This document shows positions 2 through 9,709 of a stretch of 10,071 nucleotides of DNA, one piece after another. The DNA is from JBGPLH01 sp041486365 [NCBI: Thermodesulfobacteriota bacterium] (GTDB lineage Bacteria > JAUYMQ01), in NCBI GenBank assembly GCA_041486365.1, contig JBGPLH010000096.1, forward strand, positions 1-10,071. Direction: 5' to 3'. The notes under the pieces are model-generated. The model did not search any database. It was given only the letters and a program-made list of their open reading frames with translations, and was not told the DNA's origin. How positions within the stretch are numbered: position 1 is the first letter of the stretch; the number at the start of each line of letters is the position of its first letter. The translations under genes were made by a program, and so were the position numbers.

Positions 2-583
2 GGATTCGATATCTCCCTCACGGAGCTGAACGAGGGGTTCATCGCGCGGGCCGGAAGCCCCGCCGGAGAGGAGGTCCTTGCCTCGCTCGCGCTTCCCCCG
101 GCCGCCGACGCGCTGTGCGAGCTGGAGCGTTGGGACATCGAGGAGTGCGCGCGCTCGATTCACCGCCGCCTGGACACGAGCGATCTCCCCGCGCTGCTCT
201 ACGCGAATCTAGAACACCCGCGATGGGACGAGGTGGCAAAGCGGTGCCTGTCCTGCGGCAACTGCACGATGGTGTGCCCCACCTGCTTCTGCCACGACGA
301 ATTCGACGAGCCGAGCCTCGACGGGAAGCGCTCGGAGCGCGTGCGCGTCTGGGACTCCTGCTTCAACCGCGAGCACGCGCAGGTGAACGGCCACAACTTT
401 CGCCCGCACATCAGCGACCGTTACCGCCAGTGGCTCACGCACAAGCTCGCGTCCTGGATCGACCAGTTCGGGTCCTCCGGATGCGTCGGCTGCGGCCGCT
501 GCATCACCTGGTGCCCCGTGGGGATCGACCTCATCGAGGAGATCGGGGCCATCCGGGGGAGCAAGGGCGATGGAAGCCGCTAG
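2..583 (+). CDS. hydB: Group 3b [NiFe]-hydrogenase (sulfhydrogenase) beta subunit, 4Fe-4S dicluster protein, C-terminal part
   Basis: Iron-sulfur subunit that carries electrons between the hydrogenase core and the flavoprotein gamma subunit in the cytoplasm. The frame is open from the first bases of the window, so the start lies upstream; 193 residues and the stop are visible, probably about half of the protein. Two ferredoxin-type CxxCxxCxxxCP motifs are seen, at fragment residues 82-92 (followed by a TCFC sequence) and 161-171 ([13 protein letters not shown]), plus a WDSC motif near 117-120 and a [13 protein letters not shown] stretch typical of the HydB/AsrA family. It overlaps the gamma gene by 14 bases. 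AsrA of anaerobic sulfite reductase is a close homologue, but the hydrogenase subunits downstream decide the call. The N-terminal half, which could carry an extra domain, cannot be seen. A GTG at 233 is an internal valine and not the start. Confidence 0.93.
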
Positions 584-1415
584 CCCCCTGGGATATCTCC
601 GGCCCGAGCCGGTCCAGATCGTCGAGAAGCGGAGCTTCGGCCCGGACATCCACGCCTACCGCCTGCGCCTTGTCGACCCCGCGGCGCGCCCCCGCTTCGA
701 TTTTCTGCCGGGGCAGTTCAACATGGTCTACGTCCCCGGCGTGGGCGAGGTGGCGATCTCGATCTCCTCTGATCCCGAGGAGGAGACGCTAGAGCACACG
801 ATCCGGATCGTGGGCCGCACGACCCGCGTGATCGCGAAGCTCGACGTGGGTCACGTGCTCGGGATCCGCGGCCCCTACGGCACGCCCTGGCCGCTGCACG
901 AGTCGCGGTGGAAGGACGTGCTCGTGATCACGGGCGGCGTGGGATGCGCGCCCGTGGCGGGCGCCGTGGACTACATGTTCCGTCGCCGGGCCAACTACGG
1001 CCGGATCACGATCCTCCACGGCGTGAAGAAGCCCAAGGACCTGATCCACCGCGAGCGCTTCGACATGTGGCGGCGTGAGCCGAACACGCGCGTGCTCCTG
1101 GCCTCCGACGAACCCGATCGCCAGTGGAAGGGGCACCTCGGCGTGGTGACGGAGCTGTTTGATCAGATCGAGATCGATCCGGCGCGGACCGTGTCGTTCC
1201 TCTGCGGGCCGGAGGTCATGATGCGTTACGCGATCGGGCGGATGCGCGACCTCGGCCTCAGCGAGGACCGGATCTTCCTCTCGATGGAGCGGAACATGAA
1301 ATGCGCGGTGGGCCTCTGCGGCCACTGCCAGCTCGGGCCGGAGTTCGTCTGCAAGGACGGTCCGATCTTTCCCTACAGGCGGATCAGGAAATTCCTGGGC
1401 GTGAGGGGCCTGTGA
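570..1415 (+). CDS. hydG: Group 3b [NiFe]-hydrogenase gamma subunit, FAD/NAD(P)-binding with [2Fe-2S] cluster
   Basis: Diaphorase subunit of 281 residues that exchanges electrons between NAD(P)(H) and the Fe-S chain, in the cytoplasm. It belongs to the ferredoxin-NADP reductase-like HydG/AsrB family (unrelated to the HydG of [FeFe]-hydrogenase maturation). Visible in order: a beta-barrel FAD domain with PGQFNMV (48-53) and VAISISS (61-67), GPYG at 101-104, the nucleotide-binding TGGVGCAP at 121-128, CGPEVMM at 212-218, and a C-terminal [2Fe-2S] site with cysteines 245, 250, 253 and 261. The ATG at 570 has GGGGGAG eight bases upstream and overlaps the beta gene by 14 bases, so the two are probably translated together. 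The stop shares GTGA with the start of the small subunit. Whether NADP or NAD is used cannot be read from the sequence with certainty; NADP is usual for group 3b. Confidence 0.94.
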
Positions 1416-2194
1416 ACGGCAAGCGACCGCGGCTGGCGGTGTTCAAGTTCGCGTCCTGCGACGGATGCCAGGTGTCGATCCTCAACCTCGAGGACGAGCT
1501 GATCGAGCTCGCCGAGCGGTTCGAGATCGCGCACTTCCTCGAGGCTTCGAGCCGCGTGGAGCCGGGGCCCTGGGACATCGCGCTCGTCGAGGGGAGCATC
1601 ACCACGCCGGAGGACGCGGAGCGGATCAAGCGCATCCGGGCGGAGGCGGGCACGCTGATCACGATCGGCGCCTGCGCCACGGCGGGCGGGATCCAGGCGC
1701 TGCGCAACGTGGCCGACGTGGAGGAGATGAAGCGGCACGTGTACCCGCACCCCGAATGGATCGCGACGCTCGAGACCTCGACGCCCATATCGAGCCACGT
1801 GAAGGTCGATCACGAGATCCACGGCTGCCCCGTGGACAAGCACCAGGTGCTCCGCGTGCTCACCCGGGCCCTGCTGGGCGCGACGCCCGATCTCCCGGGC
1901 GCAAGCGTGTGCCTGGAGTGCAAGCGCGCGGGGAACGTCTGCGTCATGGTCGCCAAGGGAATCCCCTGCATGGGTCCCGTGACGCGGGCCGGCTGCGGCG
2001 CCATCTGTCCCGCCATGGGGCGGGACTGCTACGCCTGCTTCGGGCCCGCCGACGATCCGAACCCGGAGTCGCTCGCGCACCAGTTCCAGACGATGGGCGT
2101 CTACGCGCACGACGTGGCGCGGCGATTCCGCGGCACGAACGGATGGAGCCCCGAGTTCCGCCGCGTGGCCGATCGGATGGAGAAGCGCTCATGA
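1412..2194 (+). CDS. hydD: Group 3b [NiFe]-hydrogenase small (delta) subunit
   Basis: Electron-relay subunit of 260 residues that pairs with the NiFe large subunit. The start is the GTG at 1412, which overlaps the gamma stop in GTGA; GAGGGG lies three bases upstream, and the protein begins just before the family's VFKFASCDGCQ motif. Proximal [4Fe-4S] ligands are Cys16, Cys19, Cys88 (IGACAT) and Cys139 (GCP). Eight more cysteines (167, 170, 177, 186, 195, 199, 206, 209) make twelve in all, enough for the three [4Fe-4S] clusters expected in group 3 enzymes. There is no Tat signal and no C-terminal membrane anchor, so the enzyme is cytosolic. An in-frame extension back to 1301 lies inside the gamma gene and is not needed. 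The stop overlaps the large subunit start in ATGA. Confidence 0.95.
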   Translation: MNGKRPRLAVFKFASCDGCQVSILNLEDELIELAERFEIAHFLEASSRVEPGPWDIALVEGSITTPEDAERIKRIRAEAGTLITIGACATAGGIQALRNVADVEEMKRHVYPHPEWIATLETSTPISSHVKVDHEIHGCPVDKHQVLRVLTRALLGATPDLPGASVCLECKRAGNVCVMVAKGIPCMGPVTRAGCGAICPAMGRDCYACFGPADDPNPESLAHQFQTMGVYAHDVARRFRGTNGWSPEFRRVADRMEKRS

Positions 2195-3504
2195 CGGAGA
2201 AGCGCACGATCGAGGTGGGTGCCCTTGCCCGGGTGGAAGGGGAGGGCGCGCTGCACCTCACCTTCGAGGGGGACCGGCTCACGGATCTCCGGCTGCAGAT
2301 CTATGAGCCGCCCCGCATGTTCGAGAGCTTCTCCCGAGGCCGTCGCGGCGCGGAGCTGCCCGATCTGCTCGCGCGGATCTGCGGCATCTGTCCGGTGGCC
2401 TACCAGATGAGCGCCGTCCACGCGGTGGAGGAGGCCTGGGGCGTCGCCATCGAGCCGCCGATCCGGGCGCTGCGCCGCCTGTACTACGCGGGCGAGTGGA
2501 TCGAGAGCCACCTCCTCCACATGATGTTCCTCGCCGCGCCCGACTACCTGGGGCTCGACGACGGCTTCGCCGTCGCGCGGGAGCATCGCGCCGAGGTGGA
2601 ACGCTCGCTCAGGCTGCGCAAGCTCGGCAACAGGATGATCGCCCTCCTCGGCGGGCGCTCCGTGAACCCCGTGGGCGTCTGCGTCGGCGGGTTCCATCGG
2701 ATCCCCACGCGCGCGGAGCTGTCGGAGCTGGCCGACGAGCTGCGCCACGCCCGCGGAGAGGCGGAATCGCTCCTGCACTGGTTCGCGCGGCTGCCCGTGC
2801 CGCGGCGCCCGCAGGAGATCGAGCTGGTCTCGCTCCGCCACGGGTCGGAGTACCCGATGAACGAGGGGCGGATCGTCTCGAACCGCGGGCTCGATATCGC
2901 GCCGGCCGGGTTCGACGACGCCTTCGAGGAGACGCAGGTCCCGCACTCCACGGCGCTCCACTGCCGCCTGCGCGGCGGCGGGTCCTACCTCGTGGGGCCC
3001 CTCGCGCGGGTCCTGCTCAACCGGGAGCAACTGTCGCCGAGCGCGGCCGCGGCGCTGTCCTCGCTCCGCGAGCGGTTCGCGGGCGCCGATCTGGCGGCGT
3101 CGGTGTTCGCGCGCGGGATCGAGGTGATCGAGGCGATCGACGTCGCGATGGACGTGATCGACGAGTACGAGCCTCCCTCGGCTCCGGCCGCGCCCCACAC
3201 GCCGCGGGCGGGCACCGGCCACAGCGCCACCGAGGCGCCCCGGGGGACGCTCTACGTGAAGGTCGAGACGGATGACGTGGGGGATGTCCGGCAGATCCGC
3301 ATCGTACCGCCCACCTCGCAGAACCAGGCGCGCATCGAGGACGATCTCCGGGCCTTCGCGCCGGGGATCCTCTCCCTGTCCCAGGACGACGCCCGGCGGC
3401 GCTGCGAGGCGGCGATCCGCGACTACGATCCCTGCATCTCCTGCTCGACGCATTTCCTCACGCTCACAATCGCCCGGCGGGATGCGTCGTGCGGATCCGG
3501 GTGA
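2191..3504 (+). CDS. hydA: Group 3b [NiFe]-hydrogenase large (alpha) subunit
   Basis: Catalytic subunit of 437 residues that carries the Ni-Fe(CN)2CO site and interconverts H2 with protons and electrons. Ni ligands lie in RICGIC (Cys64, Cys67) and DPCISCSTH (Cys415, Cys418). ARVEGEG is at 13-19. EAPRG at 348-352 holds the expected catalytic arginine, Arg351. PPTSQNQ at 373-379 is typical of group 3. The family's EAPRGxLxH pattern ends here in Val356 instead of His. Maturation should cut after His421 and release a 16-residue tail. The ATG at 2191 has GGAGAAG five bases upstream and overlaps the small subunit in ATGA. The gene's end overlaps the protease gene by 16 bases. Length is close to that of archaeal HydA. 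Group 3b is inferred from the four-subunit order and from these motifs; groups 3c and 3d are less likely because of the beta and gamma partners. Confidence 0.95.
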   Translation: MTEKRTIEVGALARVEGEGALHLTFEGDRLTDLRLQIYEPPRMFESFSRGRRGAELPDLLARICGICPVAYQMSAVHAVEEAWGVAIEPPIRALRRLYYAGEWIESHLLHMMFLAAPDYLGLDDGFAVAREHRAEVERSLRLRKLGNRMIALLGGRSVNPVGVCVGGFHRIPTRAELSELADELRHARGEAESLLHWFARLPVPRRPQEIELVSLRHGSEYPMNEGRIVSNRGLDIAPAGFDDAFEETQVPHSTALHCRLRGGGSYLVGPLARVLLNREQLSPSAAAALSSLRERFAGADLAASVFARGIEVIEAIDVAMDVIDEYEPPSAPAAPHTPRAGTGHSATEAPRGTLYVKVETDDVGDVRQIRIVPPTSQNQARIEDDLRAFAPGILSLSQDDARRRCEAAIRDYDPCISCSTHFLTLTIARRDASCGSG

Positions 3505-3953
3505 TCGGCGTCGGTACCCGGCGCGGGGACGACGCGGCGGGCATCGCGGTGGCGGAGATCCTCGCGCGACAGGCGCTGCCCGCCGGGGTCACGGTCCGGA
3601 TCTGCGAGCGTCCCGGCGCGGATCTGATCGACGAGATGGACGGGGCCGATGCGGTCGTGCTCGTGGACGGCACGCGATCGGATCACCCCGCCGGCACGGT
3701 GCGCCGCCTCCGGTCCGGGGAGATCGCCGCGGGGCCGGCGCTGTCGACCCACGCCTTGGGCGTGCGCGAGGCGCTCGGCCTGGCAGATGCGCTCGGTCGA
3801 TTGCCCGCGCGCGTGGAGATCGTCGGGATCGAAGCCGGCGACGCGCGGGAGGGCGATCTCTCATCGCCCGTTCGCGATGCCTTGCCCCTGGCGATCGCGA
3901 CGGTTCGCGCGGTGATCGAGGAGACGGCTTCCGCCGGGGCGCGGGGGACCTGA
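3489..3953 (+). CDS. Hydrogenase maturation endopeptidase (HyaD/HycI/FrxA family)
   Basis: Protease of 154 residues that removes the C-terminal tail of the large subunit after nickel is inserted. The fold family is shown by GVGTRRGDDAAG at 7-18, and the three expected metal/nickel-contact residues are Asp15, Asp60 (VVLVDG) and His88 (STHAL). The usual GxGNxxxxD loop reads G-V-G-T-R-R-G-D-D here, so the common Asn is Thr. The start is GTG at 3489, 16 bases inside the large-subunit gene, with a weak GGCGGGA upstream; no in-frame start fits the MRIRVIGVG beginning better. The position directly after its substrate gene, ahead of hypA, points to a dedicated protease for this enzyme. The last dozen residues are low-complexity and probably disordered. 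Confidence 0.9.
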   Translation: MRIRVIGVGTRRGDDAAGIAVAEILARQALPAGVTVRICERPGADLIDEMDGADAVVLVDGTRSDHPAGTVRRLRSGEIAAGPALSTHALGVREALGLADALGRLPARVEIVGIEAGDAREGDLSSPVRDALPLAIATVRAVIEETASAGARGT

Positions 3954-3963
3954 GGGCTCCGCC

Positions 3964-4206
3964 ATGCACGAAGCGAAACTGTGCCTGTCGCTGATCGATC
4001 TCGCCGAGACGCACCTCCGCCGCGCGGGCGGCGAGCGGATCGCGGCAATGCGCCTGGAGGTGGGCGACCTCTGCGGCGTGATTCCGGAAGCCCTCGAGGC
4101 CGCGTTCCCGATCTGCGCCTCGGGCACGCGGGCCGAGAACGCGGCGCTTCATATATATAGGACGCAGGGGCGGAACCTCGTCCTGCGGGACATGGAGATC
4201 GTCTGA
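3964..4206 (+). CDS. hypA: HypA nickel metallochaperone, internally shortened and without zinc ribbon
   Basis: HypA hands nickel to the large subunit together with HypB. This copy has only 80 residues, against about 110-120 for the family. The start MHE is intact; the N-terminal amine, His2 and Glu3 are the known nickel site. The body matches through LEVGDLCGVIPEALEAAF (32-49) and GTRAENAALHIY. The protein then jumps straight to GRNLVLRDMEIV, which corresponds to the last beta strand of normal HypA. The two CxxC pairs that bind structural zinc, about 35 residues, are absent; the only cysteines are 7, 38 and 51. The reading frame is kept and no CxxC pair is hidden in another frame. The ATG at 3964 has GAGGG seven bases upstream. 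It could be a functional minimal HypA, a recent deletion, or an assembly error. Confidence 0.85.
   Translation: MHEAKLCLSLIDLAETHLRRAGGERIAAMRLEVGDLCGVIPEALEAAFPICASGTRAENAALHIYRTQGRNLVLRDMEIV
4151..4159. repeat. Nine-base alternating A/T run inside hypA
   Basis: ATATATATA sits within hypA and codes for part of His-Ile-Tyr. It is the longest A/T-only run I noticed in this GC-rich window, and it lies just where the protein loses its zinc-ribbon segment. It may mark a deletion junction, or be chance; it is in a coding frame and I do not read it as a promoter. Confidence 0.5.
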
Positions 4207-4943
4207 TGTGCACGACCTGTGGCTGCGGCGAGCCCGACCTTCCCGCCGGGACCGTGACCCACCACACGCATCCGCCGGACACGCGGCGGATCCGGGTCGA
4301 GCGCTCGATCCTCGAGGAAAACGACCGGCACGCCGAGGCGCTGCGCAAGAGCCTCGCGGAGCGCGGGATCGAGGCGATCGGCCTTCTCGGCGGGCCGGGC
4401 GCCGGGAAGACGACCTTGCTCGAGGCCACGCTCGCGCGCCTCGGCTCAGAGGCCGCGTCGCAGGCCGCGGTAGAAGGTGACTGTGCGGGCGACCGCGACG
4501 CCCGGCGCGTGGCGGCCCGGGGCGCGCGCGTGGTGCAGGTGGTGACGGGGGCCGTCTGCCACCTCGACGCGCACCTCGTCGGGCACGCGCTGGAGGATCT
4601 CGACCTGGCGGGCGTCACGCGCCTGTGGATCGAGAACGTCGGGAACCTCGTCTGCCCCGCGCCGTTCGCCTGCGGCGAGACGCGCCGCGTGGTGCTCGTC
4701 TCCACGGCGGAGGGGGACGACAAGCCGGAGAAATACCCGGCGATGATCGCGGCGGCCGATCTCCTCGTGATCACGAAGATCGATCTGCTTCCCCACGTGG
4801 ATTTCGAGCCGGACCGCTGCACGGCCGCCGCGCGCGTCGTCCGGCCGGATCTGCCTGTGTTCCGGCTGTCGGCCCGGACGGGCGAAGGGATGGACGCGTG
4901 GCTCCGCTGGTTGGGCGAAAGCCCGGGCGAGGGGAGGGCGTAG
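4206..4943 (+). CDS. hypB: HypB nickel-inserting GTPase
   Basis: G3E-type GTPase of 245 residues that drives nickel delivery to the hydrogenase with HypA. The N-terminus MCTTCGCG carries the CxxCGC high-affinity nickel motif, followed by a small His patch (THHTH, 18-22). The P-loop GGPGAGKT is at 62-69, EGD at 90-92, and the dimer-interface metal site uses Cys118-His119 (VCHLDA) and Cys150 (NLVCPA). EGDDKPEKYP is at 169-178 and the G4 motif is TKID at 190-193 instead of the common NKxD. An additional cysteine, Cys93, follows the EGD. The ATG at 4206 shares one base with the hypA stop (TGATG) and has GGAG eight bases upstream, so hypA and hypB are probably translationally coupled. Full-length for a HypB with a short N-terminal metal region. 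Confidence 0.95.
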   Translation: MCTTCGCGEPDLPAGTVTHHTHPPDTRRIRVERSILEENDRHAEALRKSLAERGIEAIGLLGGPGAGKTTLLEATLARLGSEAASQAAVEGDCAGDRDARRVAARGARVVQVVTGAVCHLDAHLVGHALEDLDLAGVTRLWIENVGNLVCPAPFACGETRRVVLVSTAEGDDKPEKYPAMIAAADLLVITKIDLLPHVDFEPDRCTAAARVVRPDLPVFRLSARTGEGMDAWLRWLGESPGEGRA

Positions 4944-4945
4944 CC

Positions 4946-5185
4946 ATGTGCCTCGCGGTTCCCGGACGGGTTCGCGTGGTGGAGGAGTCCGACGGGCTCC
5001 TCCTTGCCACGGTGGACTTCGGCGGCGTGCGCAAGCGCGTATGCCTGGAGACGCTGCCGGAGGCGAAGGTGGGCGACTGGATCCTGGTGCACGCGGGCTT
5101 CGGGCTGCAGATCCTCGACGAGGCCGCGGCGGAGGAAGTCCTGCGCTGGGTGGCCCCACGGGCCCGGTCCGGAGGGGACGCATGA
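4946..5185 (+). CDS. hypC: HypC/HybG hydrogenase assembly chaperone
   Basis: Small chaperone of 79 residues that carries the Fe(CN)2CO unit with HypD and then docks it to the large subunit precursor. The essential N-terminal Cys2 is in MCLAVPG, and the conserved His49 lies in LVHAGFG; both are expected iron contacts. The start is the ATG at 4946, two bases after the hypB stop, with a strong GGGGAGGG seven bases upstream. A longer in-frame reading back into hypB is excluded because Cys2 must be next to the initiating Met. The stop overlaps hypD in ATGA. The length is normal for the family. Confidence 0.95.
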   Translation: MCLAVPGRVRVVEESDGLLLATVDFGGVRKRVCLETLPEAKVGDWILVHAGFGLQILDEAAAEEVLRWVAPRARSGGDA

Positions 5186-6306
5186 AGTATGTGGACGAGT
5201 ACCGCGATCCCGAGGCGCTCCGGCGCGCGGCCGGCCGGGTCCTCGACGGGGCGACGCGCCCCTGGACGCTGATGGAGGTGTGCGGCGGCCAGACCCACGC
5301 GATCCTCGAGAGCGGCCTGGACGCGCTCATCGCGGAGCGCGTGACGCTGCTCCACGGCCCCGGCTGTCCCGTCTGCGTGACCCCCCTCGAAACGCTCGAC
5401 CGCGCGGTGTCGCTCGCCGGGACGCCCGGTGTGATCCTCTGCTCCTTCGGCGACATGCTCCGCGTCCCCGGATCCCGCGGCGATCTCTTCGGCGCCCGCG
5501 CCCGGGGCGGCGACGTGCGGATCGTCTACTCGCCGCTGGACGCCGTCCGGCTCGCCGCGCGAACGCCCGAGGCCAGCGTCGTGTTCCTCGCCGTGGGTTT
5601 CGAGACGACGATTCCCTCCGTCGCGGCTGCCGCGCGCTGGGCGCGGAAGCAGGGGCTCACGAATTTCTTCCTGCTCGCCTCCCACGTCCGCGTGCCGCCC
5701 GCGCTCGCGGCGATCCTGGAGGCGCCGGGCTGCCGCGTGGACGCCTTCCTGGCCGCGGGGCACGTCTGCACGATCATGGGGACCTCCGAGTACGAGCCGA
5801 TCGCGCGCCGCTTCCGGGTGCCCATCGTCGCCACGGGCTTCGAGCCGCTCGACATCCTCCAGGGGATCGCCCTCGCCGTGGATCAACTCGAGCGCGGCGA
5901 GGCGCGCGTGGAGATCCAGTACCGGCGCGCCGTGCGCCCCGGGGGGAATCCGGCCGCGCGGGCCATCGTCGAGGACGTGTTCGCCATCGGCGATCGCCCC
6001 TGGCGCGGGATCGGCGTGATCCCGGACGGCGGATTCGTGATGCGCGAGTCCTGGGCGGGGTTCGACGCCCTGCGCGCGTTCCCGGATCTGCTGAGCGAGA
6101 TCCCGCGCGAGTCGCCCGCCTGCCGCGCGGCCGACGTGCTGCGCGGGGTGCTCAGGCCGCCCGAGTGCCCCGAGTTCGGCCGCGGCTGCACGCCCGATCG
6201 CCCGCTCGGCGCGCCGATGGTTTCGGCCGAGGGAGCCTGCGCGGCGTACTTCCATTACCGGATCGCCGGAGCGGCGGGGGAAGCCGGCGCGGAGAGCATC
6301 GCATGA
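5182..6306 (+). CDS. hypD: HypD, Fe-S scaffold for Fe(CN)2CO assembly
   Basis: Iron-sulfur protein of 374 residues that, with HypC, holds iron while CN and CO ligands are attached. Conserved motifs are all visible: MEVCGGQTH (Cys34), GPGCPVC (Cys62, Cys65), GFETT at 139-143, and a C-terminal Fe-S region with Cys329 (ECPEFG), Cys336 (GCTP) and Cys353 (EGACAAYF). The fourth ligand is usually the second Cys of a CRCG-like motif; here the sequence is CRAAD, so that position is Ala316 and only Cys314 is near. The ATG at 5182 overlaps hypC in ATGA and has a near-perfect GGAGGGG four bases upstream. The stop overlaps hypE in ATGA. Length is usual for HypD. Confidence 0.95.
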   Translation: MKYVDEYRDPEALRRAAGRVLDGATRPWTLMEVCGGQTHAILESGLDALIAERVTLLHGPGCPVCVTPLETLDRAVSLAGTPGVILCSFGDMLRVPGSRGDLFGARARGGDVRIVYSPLDAVRLAARTPEASVVFLAVGFETTIPSVAAAARWARKQGLTNFFLLASHVRVPPALAAILEAPGCRVDAFLAAGHVCTIMGTSEYEPIARRFRVPIVATGFEPLDILQGIALAVDQLERGEARVEIQYRRAVRPGGNPAARAIVEDVFAIGDRPWRGIGVIPDGGFVMRESWAGFDALRAFPDLLSEIPRESPACRAADVLRGVLRPPECPEFGRGCTPDRPLGAPMVSAEGACAAYFHYRIAGAAGEAGAESIA

Positions 6307-7364
6307 GCCGCGCCTACGACCCGAATCGCCTCGCGAGCCCGATCTGTCCCCTGCCGGTCGAGTCCGATCTCATCACGCTTTCCCACGGGGCGGGGGCGGG
6401 CGCGAGCGCGCGGCTCTTCGAGCAGGTCCTCTGGCCGCATCTGAAGAACGAGGCGCTCGGCGCGCGCCACGACGGCGCCGTGCTCGACGCGGGCGGCGCC
6501 CGGATCGCCTTCACCACCGACACCTTCGTCGTGCGCCCGATCGAGTTCCCGGGCGGCGATATCGGCGTGCTGGCGGTGCACGGCACGCTGAACGATCTGG
6601 CGATGTGCGGCGCCCGGCCCATCGGGCTTTCCTGCGCGTTGATTCTCGAGGAGGGCTTCCCCCTCGCGACGCTCGGGCGCGTGGTCGCCTCCATCGCGGG
6701 CGCGGCCCGGGCGTCCGGAGTCGAGGTCGTCACCGGCGACACCAAGGTGGTCGAGCGGGGGAAGGGCGACGGGATCTTCGTCAACACGGCGGGCGTGGGG
6801 ATCGTGCCGCCCGGCCGCGACCTGCGCCCCGCGCGGGTGGAGCCCGGAGGAATCGTGATCGTGTCGGGCCCCATCGGCTGCCACGGTGCGGCCATCCTTT
6901 CGGTGCGCGAGGGGCTCGAGTTCGATTCGGACATCGTGAGCGACACGGCCGCCCTGCCGGACCTGGTGGAATCGCTGCTGGACGCGGCGCCCGGGACGCG
7001 CTGTCTGCGCGACCCGACGCGGGGAGGCCTGGGCGCGGCGCTCCACGAGATCGCCTCTGCCGCGGGCGTCGAGATCGAGATCGAGGAGCTTTCGATCCCC
7101 GTGACGGAGCCCGTGCGCGTGGTCTGCGAGTTGCTCGGCCTCGATCCGCTCTTCCTCGCCTCCGAAGGCAGGCTCGTCGCCTTCGTGCCGGAGGCGGAGG
7201 CCGAGCGCGCGTGCGCGGCGCTCAGATCCCATCCGCTCGGCCGCGACGCCGTGCGCGTCGGCCGCGTCCTCGCGGGCCGCGCGGGGGTCGTGGTGCGCAC
7301 CCGGATCGGCGCGCGGCGCTTCCTGCCCCTTCCCGCCGGAGACCCGCTTCCCCGGATCTGCTGA
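6303..7364 (+). CDS. hypE: HypE, carbamoyl dehydratase (thiocyanate-forming)
   Basis: HypE takes the carbamoyl group from HypF on its last cysteine and dehydrates it with ATP to a thiocyanate, the source of the cyanide ligands. The protein has 353 residues and ends in LPRIC, so the essential C-terminal Cys353 is present and exposed. The PurM-like ATP-binding parts are clear: SHGAGAG (27-33), TTDTFVV (71-77), FPGGDIG (82-88), GTLNDLA (94-100), TGDTKVV (144-150) and RDPTRGGLG (236-244). The ATG at 6303 overlaps hypD in ATGA with GGAGAG six bases upstream. The stop shares one base with the hypF start (TGATG), so the two partner enzymes are made in coupled fashion. Confidence 0.96.
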   Translation: MSRAYDPNRLASPICPLPVESDLITLSHGAGAGASARLFEQVLWPHLKNEALGARHDGAVLDAGGARIAFTTDTFVVRPIEFPGGDIGVLAVHGTLNDLAMCGARPIGLSCALILEEGFPLATLGRVVASIAGAARASGVEVVTGDTKVVERGKGDGIFVNTAGVGIVPPGRDLRPARVEPGGIVIVSGPIGCHGAAILSVREGLEFDSDIVSDTAALPDLVESLLDAAPGTRCLRDPTRGGLGAALHEIASAAGVEIEIEELSIPVTEPVRVVCELLGLDPLFLASEGRLVAFVPEAEAERACAALRSHPLGRDAVRVGRVLAGRAGVVVRTRIGARRFLPLPAGDPLPRIC

Positions 7365-9709
7365 TGGATCGTGTCCGGCGAGAGATACGCCTTCGCGGAA
7401 TCGTCCAGGGCGTCGGCTTCCGCCCCTGGGCCGCGCGCCGCGCGTCCGCCTTGGGACTCGCGGGATCCGTCCGCAACACGACCGGCGTCGTCGTCGTCGC
7501 GCTCGAGGGATCCCCCGCCGCGGTCGACGCCTGGATCGAGGCCCTGCGCGGGGAAGGGCCGGAGGGCGCGCACATCGAGTCGCTCATCGATGAGGCAGCG
7601 CCGACGCGTGGCGAGCAGGACTTCCGGATCGATCCGAGCGCCTCGGACGAGGCCGGCCCGCGCGGTCGCATCCCGCCGGACGTGGCGCTCTGCGCTCCGT
7701 GTCTGGATGACCTCTTCGATCCCGCCGGCCGCCGCCACCGTTATCCCTTCACCCACTGCGCCGTCTGCGGCCCCCGCGCGTCGGTGCTCCTCGATCTCCC
7801 CTGGGATCGCGAGCGGACGGCGCTCCGATCGTTCCCGCCCTGCGGAGCCTGCCGCGCGGAGTACGCCGACCCCTCCAACCGGCGCTTCCACGCCCAGGCG
7901 ATCGCCTGCCCCGACTGCGGCCCCCGCGTGAGCGCGTGCTCGCCCGACGGGACCCCCGTCGCGGGCGATCCGATCGAGTCGGCGGCGGCCTGCCTGCGCG
8001 CGGGTGGGATCGTCGCCGTGAAGGGCTACGGCGGATTTCACCTCGCGGCCGACGCGACCTCGGCGGAAGCGGTGGCCCTCCTGCGCAAGCGAAAGGGGCG
8101 GCCGGCGAAGCCCTTCGCGATCCTCGTGCCGGATCTCTATCTGGCGCGCACGGTCGCGCGCATCGATTTGATCGAAGAACAGTTGTTGGCCGGTCCCGTG
8201 CGCGCCGTCGTCATCGCGCCGCGCGACGAGGCGGGCTTCCGCCGCCTGGGGATCGCGGGGGACGTGTCGCCGCGCACGGGCGACGTCGGGCTCCTGCTCC
8301 CCTTCGCGCCGCTACACTTCCTGCTGCTGTACGGCCCGGGGACGCGTCCCGGCACCGACGCCGCGCGCTTCCCGGCGCTCGTCTTCACGTCGGCCAATCT
8401 GACCGATGAGCCGACGGTGCACGCCAACGACGACGCGCGCGCGCGGCTGGCGGGGATCGCCGATCTCCTGCTCACGCACGACCGTGACGTGGCGCGGCCG
8501 AGCGACGACCCCGTCTTCCGGAGCGCCCCGTCCGGCCCGATCCCCCTTCGCCTGTCCCGCGCCACGTCGCCGCTGGCGCTCTCTCTCCCGGCGTCCTGGC
8601 GTGACGCGCCTCCCGTCCTGGCCGTCGGAGGCGATCTCAAGTGCGCTCCCGCGATTCTCGCGGGGGGCGAGATCCTGCTGGGCGAGCATGCGGGCGATCT
8701 CGCCTGCGTGGAAAGCGTGGAGGCGCTCGAGCGCCGGATCGCGGATCTGTGCCGGCTCGCGGGCGCGAATCCCGTCGCGGTCGCCCACGATCTTCACCCC
8801 GGCTACGTCGGGACCGATCTCGCGCGGCGGCTGGGACCCGAGCCGATCGGCGTGCAGCATCACCACGCGCACGCGCTGGCGTGCCTGCTCGAACACGGCC
8901 GCGCCCGCGGGCTGGCGCTGGCGCTGGACGGCGCGGGCTGGGGGACCGACGGGACGATCTGGGGCGGTGAGCTCCTGCGGGTGGACGGCGCGCGCTTCGA
9001 GCGGCTCGCGCGTCTCGAGACGGTGCCGCTTCCCGGCGGTGATGCCGCGGTGCAGGAGCCCTGGCGGATGGCGGCGGTCTGGATCGATCGGGCCTTTCCC
9101 GAGGGCGCGCCGGGCACGCCCTGGCGCCTGCGGCGAAGCGAGAGCGCCACGCGCGTCGTGCTCCAGATGGCGGCGCGCGGCCTGCGGAGCCCGCTCACGT
9201 CCTCGACGGGTCGTCTCTTCGACGCCGTGGCGTCCCTTCTGGATTGCGGAGACCGGGTGACGCACGAGGGGGAGGCCGCGATGGCCCTGGAATCCCTCGC
9301 GGCGACCTTCGCGGGGGAGCCGGTGGACGGGGGGGACGCGATGGCGGCGGCGGTCGGCGGAGACGTGGTGATCCGCGCCGCCGATCTCATTCGCGCGATC
9401 CTGCTGGAGCGTCTTCGCGGGGACGAGCTCTCCGCGATCGCATGGCGGTTCCACGCGCGTCTGGCCTCGCGTCTCGCGGCCTGTGCGGCGGCGTGGGCGC
9501 GGCGGCTCGACGAGAACGCGGTGGCGCTTACCGGCGGCTGCCTGCAGAACCGCCTTCTGTCCGAGATGCTCCGGACGCGGCTCCTCGCGGCGGGGATCGA
9601 GCCGCTTCTCCATCACCGGATCCCGCCCAACGACGGCGGGCTCGCGGTGGGTCAGGCCGCCGTGGCGGCGGCGCTCCTGCTCGCCCGAGGCGAAGGGACC
9701 CGGGCCTGA
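7364..9709 (+). CDS. hypF: HypF carbamoyltransferase
   Basis: HypF of 781 residues uses carbamoyl phosphate and ATP to make carbamoyl-AMP and moves the carbamoyl group to HypE. Domains in order: acylphosphatase-like at about 1-92 (GIVQGVGFRP at 12-21); two zinc fingers with Cys110/113/132/135 and Cys160/163/182/185; a YrdC-like domain at about 205-395 (KGRPAKPFAI at 244-253, FTSANLTDEP at 341-350, SDDPVF at 380-385); and a Kae1-like domain with HDLHPGY (475-481), QHHHAHA (498-504), LDGAGWGTDG (521-530), STGRLFDA (614-621), TGGCLQN (723-729) and NDGG (756-759). It is complete. No good Shine-Dalgarno precedes the ATG at 7364; translation probably re-initiates from the hypE stop. This is the last gene of the operon. 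Confidence 0.96.
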   Translation: MDRVRREIRLRGIVQGVGFRPWAARRASALGLAGSVRNTTGVVVVALEGSPAAVDAWIEALRGEGPEGAHIESLIDEAAPTRGEQDFRIDPSASDEAGPRGRIPPDVALCAPCLDDLFDPAGRRHRYPFTHCAVCGPRASVLLDLPWDRERTALRSFPPCGACRAEYADPSNRRFHAQAIACPDCGPRVSACSPDGTPVAGDPIESAAACLRAGGIVAVKGYGGFHLAADATSAEAVALLRKRKGRPAKPFAILVPDLYLARTVARIDLIEEQLLAGPVRAVVIAPRDEAGFRRLGIAGDVSPRTGDVGLLLPFAPLHFLLLYGPGTRPGTDAARFPALVFTSANLTDEPTVHANDDARARLAGIADLLLTHDRDVARPSDDPVFRSAPSGPIPLRLSRATSPLALSLPASWRDAPPVLAVGGDLKCAPAILAGGEILLGEHAGDLACVESVEALERRIADLCRLAGANPVAVAHDLHPGYVGTDLARRLGPEPIGVQHHHAHALACLLEHGRARGLALALDGAGWGTDGTIWGGELLRVDGARFERLARLETVPLPGGDAAVQEPWRMAAVWIDRAFPEGAPGTPWRLRRSESATRVVLQMAARGLRSPLTSSTGRLFDAVASLLDCGDRVTHEGEAAMALESLAATFAGEPVDGGDAMAAAVGGDVVIRAADLIRAILLERLRGDELSAIAWRFHARLASRLAACAAAWARRLDENAVALTGGCLQNRLLSEMLRTRLLAAGIEPLLHHRIPPNDGGLAVGQAAVAAALLLARGEGTRA

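What the first reader, a model, noticed from the sequence alone, without database searches (positions are those of the whole stretch)
3964..4206. HypA without its zinc-ribbon domain
The protein has the nickel-binding MHE start, the conserved body and the last strand (GRNLVLRDMEIV), but the whole segment with the two CxxC pairs is missing and the frame is kept. All other operon genes look intact. If real, this is a minimal nickel chaperone and would question how necessary the structural zinc is for handing nickel to group 3b enzymes, or it would imply that HypB or a second HypA takes over. Comparison with full-length HypA is from memory of the family.
Basis: partly seen in the sequence, partly recalled or inferred. 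Interest (0 to 1): 0.6.

Follow-up and report, generated by a model that had tools for sequence, protein, structure and literature searches.

The report
Nickel chaperone HypA without zinc domain
The 80-residue protein is a real, inherited form of the nickel-delivery protein HypA that has lost its zinc-binding half; similar zinc-free forms turn up repeatedly in Myxococcota and Planctomycetota, although zinc is generally held to be needed by this protein.

Summary
ORF 3964-4206 is HypA's nickel-binding domain, complete from MHE to the last strand, with the zinc ribbon (33 residues in the nearest full-length relative) absent in frame. It is not an assembly error: 11 Myxococcota genomes carry the same gapless form (54-70% identity), 10 of them beside a related hydrogenase, one beside a different one. 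In 10 of these 11 genomes no other HypA was found over the Pfam cut-off, and each shows one [NiFe]-hydrogenase locus (drafts). AlphaFold gives a confident fold (pLDDT 93.7) that superposes on solved HypA over all 80 residues (Z 14.6), the zinc domain replaced by a turn. The window type keeps HypB with its metal motifs.

Followed up, zinc-free HypA proved common: 27 of 104 Myxococcota genomes with a HypA-family match, 20 of 65 Planctomycetota, 1 of 91 Acidobacteriota, at least 2 of 117 Actinomycetota, 0 of 86 Pseudomonadota. One origin for all is rejected (AU p 0.010, 82 columns). A second clade has a conserved histidine trio and no HypB over cut-off in 30 of 30 genomes. Most likely the window protein is the working nickel chaperone of its hydrogenase; that function is inferred, not shown. 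New variant of a known kind.

The parts
3964..4206 (+). hypA, zinc-free form, 80 aa (nickel-binding domain only)
   Evidence: AF2 model; Z 14.6 to solved HypA
3964..3972 (+). Met-His-Glu nickel-binding start
   Evidence: MHE in 12 of 12 window-type sequences, GTG starts read as Met; role from PMC5557546 passages
4165..4170 (+). junction (codons 68-69) where the zinc ribbon of full-length HypA would lie; a turn between strands 61-67 and 72-79 in the model
   Evidence: alignment with L058; secondary structure
4204..4208 (+). TGATG: hypA stop overlapping hypB start by one base
   Evidence: same overlap in 10 of 12 window-type copies, window included; G001 is cut by its contig end after residue 80, G002's frame runs 9 residues further
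4206..4943 (+). hypB, with N-terminal CxxCGC, CH and CPAPF metal motifs and an I-x-V pair that looks like the HypA-docking pair
   Evidence: TIGR00073 242 bits, cut-off 121.2; motifs; docking pair matched by eye to PMC3287977 passages
4946..5185 (+). hypC
   Evidence: TIGR00074 68 bits, cut-off 48
5182..6306 (+). hypD
   Evidence: TIGR00075 447.1 bits, cut-off 192.8
6303..7364 (+). hypE
   Evidence: TIGR02124 404.6 bits, cut-off 251.6
7364..9709 (+). hypF
   Evidence: TIGR00143 633.8 bits, cut-off 466.1
3489..3953 (+). hydrogenase maturation protease (hyaD-like)
   Evidence: TIGR00072 98.1 bits, cut-off 47.45
2191..3504 (+). hydrogenase large subunit (hyhL)
   Evidence: best NCBIfam matches are sulfhydrogenase/NAD(P)-dependent hydrogenase alpha, 222 and 218 bits, below their cut-offs; relatives
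1412..2194 (+). hydrogenase small subunit (hyhS)
   Evidence: best matches are the delta subunits of the same enzymes, below cut-off
570..1415 (+). FAD/NAD-binding gamma subunit (hyhB)
   Evidence: best matches are cytochrome-c3 hydrogenase gamma and sulfhydrogenase gamma, below cut-off
2..583 (+). iron-sulfur beta subunit (hyhG), cut by the window start
   Evidence: best matches are sulfhydrogenase beta subunits, below cut-off

Best explanation
The gene encodes a genuine, inherited zinc-free HypA that is the working nickel chaperone of the hydrogenase in its operon. Shown: it is predicted to fold as the whole HypA nickel-binding domain with a turn where the zinc ribbon was, keeps MHE, overlaps and is co-encoded with an intact HypB, and is the only HypA found in 10 of 11 relatives. 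Inferred: it docks on HypB through the nickel-binding domain, takes nickel at the Met-His-Glu end, and presents it to the N-terminal region of the immature large subunit as the nickel domain does in the solved HypA-HyhL complex. Because His98, which completes the nickel site in the Thermococcus HypA-HypB complex, has no counterpart here, the window protein must complete its site in another way (a weaker site, or a ligand from HypB or the large subunit). The tree suggests that the ribbon was lost once in the ancestor of this Myxococcota group.
For: Same gapless form in 11 other genomes, three of them from named, separate MAG projects. Clade of 12 with 100/98 support, placed beside a full-length HypA (97/86). 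MHE, Gly34, Pro41, Leu62, Gly69, Glu78 12 of 12; no CxxC in 12 of 12. Operon order hydrogenase-protease-hypABCDEF kept as far as contigs reach, except in G076, where hypABCDE follow a different hydrogenase. TGATG overlap with hypB in 10 of 12 copies. No other HypA over cut-off in 10 of 11 genomes. One hydrogenase locus in each of 15 short-HypA genomes examined, 11 of the window type. HypB matched in 11 of 11, 10 over cut-off. AF2 pLDDT 93.7; Z 14.6, rmsd 1.2, 80 of 80 residues to TkHypA, 14.4 to HypA in the HyhL complex. His98 role and HyhL contact: PMC7055735 passages.
Against: No experiment was run. In Helicobacter pylori, C74A, C91A and C94A of the zinc site cut hydrogenase to 9-12%, equal to loss of hypA (12%), and five other cysteine changes to 15-60% (PMC5557546 passages), so loss of zinc binding is damaging in that protein. 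The relatives are draft genomes of untold completeness, so a second HypA may be missed; G022 has two. Two of 12 copies depart at the end: G001's is cut by the contig end after residue 80 and G002's runs 9 residues further. Synonymous sites are saturated (third positions 48% different against 26% and 25%), so a dN/dS test is weak. The window's own genome is not held.
Confidence: 0.84

Rival explanations
1. A second, full-length HypA elsewhere in the genome does the nickel work and the short protein is redundant or only assists.
For: One of 11 genomes, G022, holds two full-length HypA-like genes besides the short one. The relatives are drafts.
Against: 10 of 11 genomes show none over cut-off. 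The two G022 copies are divergent (61-64 bits), sit on other contigs and have no window-like hyp or hydrogenase gene within the 6.0 and 4.4 kb read. The short gene stays with the operon and overlaps hypB.
Confidence: 0.07
2. The zinc ribbon is supplied in trans by a separate small zinc-ribbon protein.
For: Weak PF01155 matches to the ribbon half only (profile about 69-99) occur in several of these genomes.
Against: The four read from window-type genomes (L043, L090, L091, L092) and those in G004 and G005 share an MPxYEYxCxxCGxxFE start, a form I recall as the common FmdB-type ribbon; G005 has full-length HypA as well. In one search every ribbon-only match of the 11 genomes lies on another contig or at least 30 kb from hypA. 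I did not search for other kinds of ribbon.
Confidence: 0.04
3. The gene is a decaying remnant after a deletion.
For: Loss of a domain that matters in a model species (PMC5557546).
Against: 11 other copies open over the 80 residues at 54-70% identity, 10 of 12 copies with the same stop and overlap with hypB; first and second codon positions differ about half as much as third ones.
Confidence: 0.02
4. Assembly or binning error removed about 99 bases.
For: An odd TATATATA stretch (4152-4159), the only one in the window, lies just before the junction in GC-rich sequence.
Against: 11 other genomes show the same gapless junction, none with that AT stretch.
Confidence: 0.01
5. The short protein has left nickel delivery and acts only as a docking or regulatory partner of HypB or the large subunit.
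For: The acidic residue at position 40, a likely nickel ligand in H. pylori (Asp40, PMC5557546 passages), is absent in 12 of 12 window-type sequences.
Against: 22 of 61 full-length HypA also lack an acid there; MHE is kept in 12 of 12.
Confidence: 0.04

Closest known systems
Full-length HypA/HybF (PF01155; TIGR00100; structures 3A43, 2KDX, 6G81)
   Same: MHE start, alpha-beta-alpha-beta-beta nickel domain over all 80 residues (Z 14.6 to 3a43_B, 14.2 to 6g81, 11.8 to 2kdx), operon with hypBCDEF
   Different: No zinc ribbon and no CxxC; scores 38 bits against TIGR00100's cut-off of 88.1, so that model would not name it
HypA in the Thermococcus kodakarensis HypA-HyhL complex (5YXY, 5YY0) and HypAB complex (5AUN, 5AUP)
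   Same: The nickel domain of these structures is matched (Z 13.4-14.4 and 13.9-14.2); the client here is also a hydrogenase of the sulfhydrogenase-like kind
   Different: His98, the HypA ligand that completes the HypAB-nickel site (PMC7055735 passages), has no counterpart here
The histidine-trio zinc-free HypA found here in Planctomycetota and other Myxococcota (82-94 aa; one of 123 aa)
   Same: Zinc ribbon absent, MHE kept (one MHD), next to a related hydrogenase
   Different: Separate clade (99/87); His at 38, 43 and 47 in 22, 29 and 27 of 30; no hypB in the stretches read and no HypB over cut-off in 30 of 30 genomes

Membership tests
HypA (Pfam PF01155) | Score over the family's gathering cut-off | tested here: met
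   54.2 bits against 28.9, residues 1-69 on profile 1-69 of 112
HypA (Pfam PF01155) | N-terminal MHE nickel-binding motif | tested here: met
   Sequence; 12 of 12 in the clade
HypA (Pfam PF01155) | Nickel-domain fold | tested here: met
   AF2 pLDDT 93.7; Z 14.6, rmsd 1.2 over 80 residues to 3a43_B
HypA (Pfam PF01155) | Zinc site of two CxxC motifs, stated for all HypA in PMC7055735 (conclusions) | tested here: not met
   No CxxC in the protein; 33 residues absent against L058
HypA equivalog TIGR00100 | Score over 88.1 bits | tested here: not met
   38 bits, profile 1-66 of 116
HypA (Pfam PF01155) | Co-encoded with HypB and a [NiFe]-hydrogenase | tested here: met
HypA (Pfam PF01155) | Binds nickel and delivers it to the large subunit | not testable with these tools
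   Needs protein work
Group 3b [NiFe]-hydrogenase (the client) | Placement in a hydrogenase classifier | not tested

The most novel reading that the evidence does not exclude
Zinc-free HypA is a widespread, repeatedly evolved mode of nickel insertion. In the window type it works with HypB but with a nickel site that cannot use a zinc-domain ligand. In the second clade a histidine trio on the nickel domain replaces both the zinc domain and the GTPase HypB, so that hydrogenase is matured with no HypB at all.
Probability: 0.4. Interest if true: 0.78.

Novelty: new variant of a known kind. Interest (0 to 1): 0.63.

Why it matters
A review states that all HypA proteins have a zinc site with two CxxC motifs (PMC7055735, conclusions), and single zinc-cysteine changes can ruin hydrogenase maturation in H. 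pylori (PMC5557546). Natural HypA proteins that dropped the whole zinc domain, more than once, and in the window type as the only HypA found in 10 of 11 genomes, turn the open question of what the zinc is for into a direct comparison. The gammaproteobacterial pair L002/L004 carries a large subunit 68% identical to the window's, with a full-length HypA on another contig, so nearly the same client could be tested with both kinds of chaperone. The clade without HypB would also question whether the GTPase is indispensable.

Tried and rejected
Looked for the window's own genome: none is held, so raw reads and a second hypA in the same genome could not be checked; relatives were used instead.

Selection test by dN/dS: 0.35-1.0 in the twelve pairs with the lowest dS, but third positions are saturated in these GC-rich genes (GC3 0.83-0.99), so I rest nothing on it.

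Replacement zinc ribbon in trans: the weak ribbon-only matches read are a generic MPxYEYxC type. Idea that loss of zinc goes with loss of HypB: not general, since the window type has a HypB match in 11 of 11 genomes and five other short-HypA genomes have one over cut-off, while three further ones have none; 2 of 10 full-length controls also lack it. Idea that Cys7 and Cys51 (each 12 of 12 in the window type, together in 1 of 61 full-length) replace the zinc cysteines: kept as an untested remark.

One origin of all zinc-free HypA: rejected on 82 columns (AU p 0.010), but the window clade and the histidine-trio clade alone as one group were not rejected (p 0.148). The quick large-subunit tree sets the two apart: the window group (10 rows and L002-L004) lies with 13 gammaproteobacterial or proteobacterial rows that I had labelled full-length; the other side holds 30 histidine-trio rows, 6 rows without a HypA match and 4 full-length rows, and the histidine-trio rows are not one clade there (5 changes). 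Two of the 17 rows labelled full-length (L009, L011) in fact had no HypA match.

Partial matches counted and dropped: Pseudomonadota G876 runs into a contig end. Of the Actinomycetota partial matches only G779 and G744 were read, so 2 of 117 is a lower bound. The Myxococcota count leaves out 20 rows whose match starts at profile position 3-30 and ends at 108-111; three were read and keep CxxC but lack MHE. Matches that run through the ribbon positions were taken as full-length without reading each. Phylum names come from the titles of the named loci in the centre genomes.

The HypB motif scan missed HypB in L005 because its start lies before the end of the longer hypA frame; one search found it at 2238.

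Papers: PMC5557546, PMC7055735, PMC12134894, PMC3287977, PMC2770081: passages only. PMC6142260 and PMC4485131 (HyhL-HypA and HypAB structures) are not held; their content is taken from review passages. Searches that turned up no printed zinc-free HypA: (listings with starts of abstracts seen); most subscription papers are outside that library.

Full report
What was checked. The ORF at 3964-4206 encodes MHEAKLCLSL...GRNLVLRDMEIV, 80 residues. Pfam HypA covers residues 1-69 at 54.2 bits, over its cut-off, while NCBI's HypA equivalog gives 38 bits against a cut-off of 88.1. The gene sits in an operon of hydrogenase subunits (G-B-S-L), a maturation protease, and hypA-B-C-D-E-F. HypB, HypC, HypD, HypE, HypF and the protease pass their NCBIfam cut-offs; the four subunits resemble NAD(P)-dependent hydrogenase/sulfhydrogenase models below their cut-offs. 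The genes from hyhB to hypF are open; hyhG is cut by the window edge.

Is it real? A scan of genome contigs with the window's large subunit gave 35 loci; three of them (L001, L005, L034) hold the same HypA, gapless to the window over 80 residues. A phylum search of 377 genomes found 41 with a match, 11 of which have this form at 54-70% identity; two more of the 41 (G274, G263) have other short forms. A search of the 90 genomes of the class of G001 returned the same 11. Of the 12 copies, window included, 10 end in a TGA that overlaps the hypB start by one base; G001's is cut by its contig end after residue 80, and G002's frame runs 9 residues further into hypB. None of the 12 has a CxxC. An assembly deletion is therefore excluded.

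Is there another HypA? In the 11 genomes, 10 have no other PF01155 match over the cut-off; G022 has two, both full-length and divergent, with no window-like hyp or hydrogenase gene in the 6.0 and 4.4 kb read around them. Each of the 15 short-HypA genomes examined for the large subunit (11 of the window type, G274, G263, G216, G400) shows one hydrogenase locus; in G003 and G215 it is split over contigs, by my reading together. In G076 the short HypA lies beside a different hydrogenase, 29% identical in the large subunit, so the short form is not tied to one enzyme. The genomes are drafts whose completeness was not told.

Anatomy. AlphaFold2, with four sequences, gives helix 2-21, strand 26-34, helix 41-52, strands 61-67 and 72-79, pLDDT 93.7. 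It superposes on solved HypA over 79 or 80 residues: 3a43_B Z 14.6, rmsd 1.2; HypA from the HyhL complex Z 13.4-14.4; HypA from the HypAB complexes Z 13.9-14.2; H. pylori HypA Z 14.2 and 11.8; the domain-swapped dimer 3a44_A only over 68 residues, Z 10.7. In those proteins the zinc ribbon lies between the last two strands; here the strands are joined by a turn. In the clade MHE is 12 of 12. Cys7, Pro49 and Cys51 are each 12 of 12; Cys7 and Cys51 occur together in 1 of 61 full-length proteins. No acid stands at position 40 in 12 of 12; 39 of 61 full-length proteins have one.

HypB. All 11 genomes have a HypB match, 10 over cut-off; G003's is split over two frames. Of the ten HypB read from their start, nine show the CxxCGC, CH and CPAxF motifs and the tenth is the broken one; L005's start was found and its motifs show (L238). 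A hydrophobic pair before the GTPase domain, I-x-V in the window, looks like the pair that HypA binding needs in A. fulgidus and E. coli HypB (PMC3287977 passages); this match is by eye.

How wide is it? PF01155 searches: Planctomycetota 65 of 199 genomes with a match, 20 of them without CxxC, one of these (L176, 128 aa) with another insert; Myxococcota 104 of 356, 27 zinc-free, that is 11 of the window type and 16 others (with 16, 17, 20); Acidobacteriota 91 of 199, 1 zinc-free; Actinomycetota 117 of 246, at least 2; Pseudomonadota 86 of 299, none, one partial match being cut by a contig end. A tree of 113 HypA nickel domains (52 zinc-free, 61 full-length, 82 columns, 35 of 110 inner branches open) holds the window type as one clade of 12 (100/98), next to full-length L058 (97/86), and a second zinc-free clade of 30 (99/87); the zinc-free state needs five changes, of which starred branches force at least three. 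All zinc-free rows as one clade are rejected (p 0.010); the two large clades as one are not (p 0.148).

The second clade. Its members carry His at 38 (22 of 30), 43 (29 of 30) and 47 (27 of 30). In 17 of the 30 the stretch read runs hypA-hypF-hypC-hypD-hypE; in the other 13 the stretch is shorter or the order differs; hypB was found in none of these stretches. None of the 30 genomes has HypB over cut-off; one (G455) has a 67-bit match. Three have near-complete single contigs and one HypA match each: G513 (9.50 Mb), G528 (4.03 Mb), G155 (8.05 Mb). Controls: HypB over cut-off in 8 of 10 full-length genomes and in 5 of 8 genomes with other short forms. This goes beyond the window and is reported as a lead.

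How it most likely works. From the papers read in passages: MHE binds nickel; in the Thermococcus HypAB complex His98 of HypA completes a nanomolar site; HypA's nickel site lies beside the HyhL nickel site in their complex (PMC7055735); zinc-cysteine changes lower hydrogenase activity in H. pylori to 9-60% (PMC5557546). In the structural alignment chain residues 1-134 pair with the model's 1-80 and the protein matches TkHypA in sequence only over 1-64, so the part with His98 has no counterpart here. I conclude, by inference, that the window protein delivers nickel from MHE to its large subunit with HypB's help and without a zinc-domain ligand, perhaps with lower affinity or with a ligand from a partner.

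Natural control. L002 and L004, from gammaproteobacteria, have large subunits 68% identical to the window's and placed inside the same clade (support 88), but their genomes have full-length HypA on other contigs and no short one was found. The enzyme itself thus does not seem to demand the short form; this assumes that the full-length HypA serves that enzyme. L003, also in that clade, has no HypA match over cut-off in its genome G004.

What is known. No paper in the searches listed under Tried and rejected describes a zinc-free HypA; the library lacks most subscription papers. A 2019 review says that all HypA proteins have both sites. I rate it a new variant of a known kind, with high confidence that the form is real, and less in the mechanism.

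Noticed in passing
L160, L164, L166, L168-L171, L192, L198, L199, L201, L202, L205, L208, L209, L211, L102 and the 30 genomes: Zinc-free HypA with a conserved His trio in hydrogenase operons without hypB; no HypB over cut-off in 30 of 30 genomes, three of them near-complete single contigs.
   Followed up: partly
L213 (about 3881-4210, minus), L214 3714-4037, L215 4125-4472; 17 further rows with similar match ranges, not read: The reverse loss: HypA-like proteins of Myxococcota that keep both CxxC pairs but lack the MHE start; no window-like hyp or hydrogenase genes nearby in the three read.
   Followed up: partly
L017, L021, L023, L025, L033, L035 (Actinomycetota): Six genomes with a related hydrogenase show no PF01155 match at E 1e-4; their large subunits nest among those of the HypB-free group.
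   Followed up: partly
L160 2871-3335, L165 1770-2237: A protein that looks like a cyclic-nucleotide-binding regulator is encoded between the iron-sulfur and gamma subunits in two HypB-free operons (by eye).
   Followed up: no
L176 (G418), HypA-like protein of 128 aa: No CxxC, but a His-rich insert (HKHERVETCHDHSEE) stands after the nickel domain.
   Followed up: no
L206, L210 (G211, G306): A further zinc-free HypA type (88-90 aa) next to hypB and hypF and a distant hydrogenase (30-31% in the large subunit).
   Followed up: no
L034 903-1519 (G003): hypB is split over two frames beside an intact short hypA; sequencing error or real break unknown.
   Followed up: no
window 4152-4159: TATATATA, the only such stretch in the window, just before the zinc-ribbon junction; the 11 relatives lack it.
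   Followed up: yes
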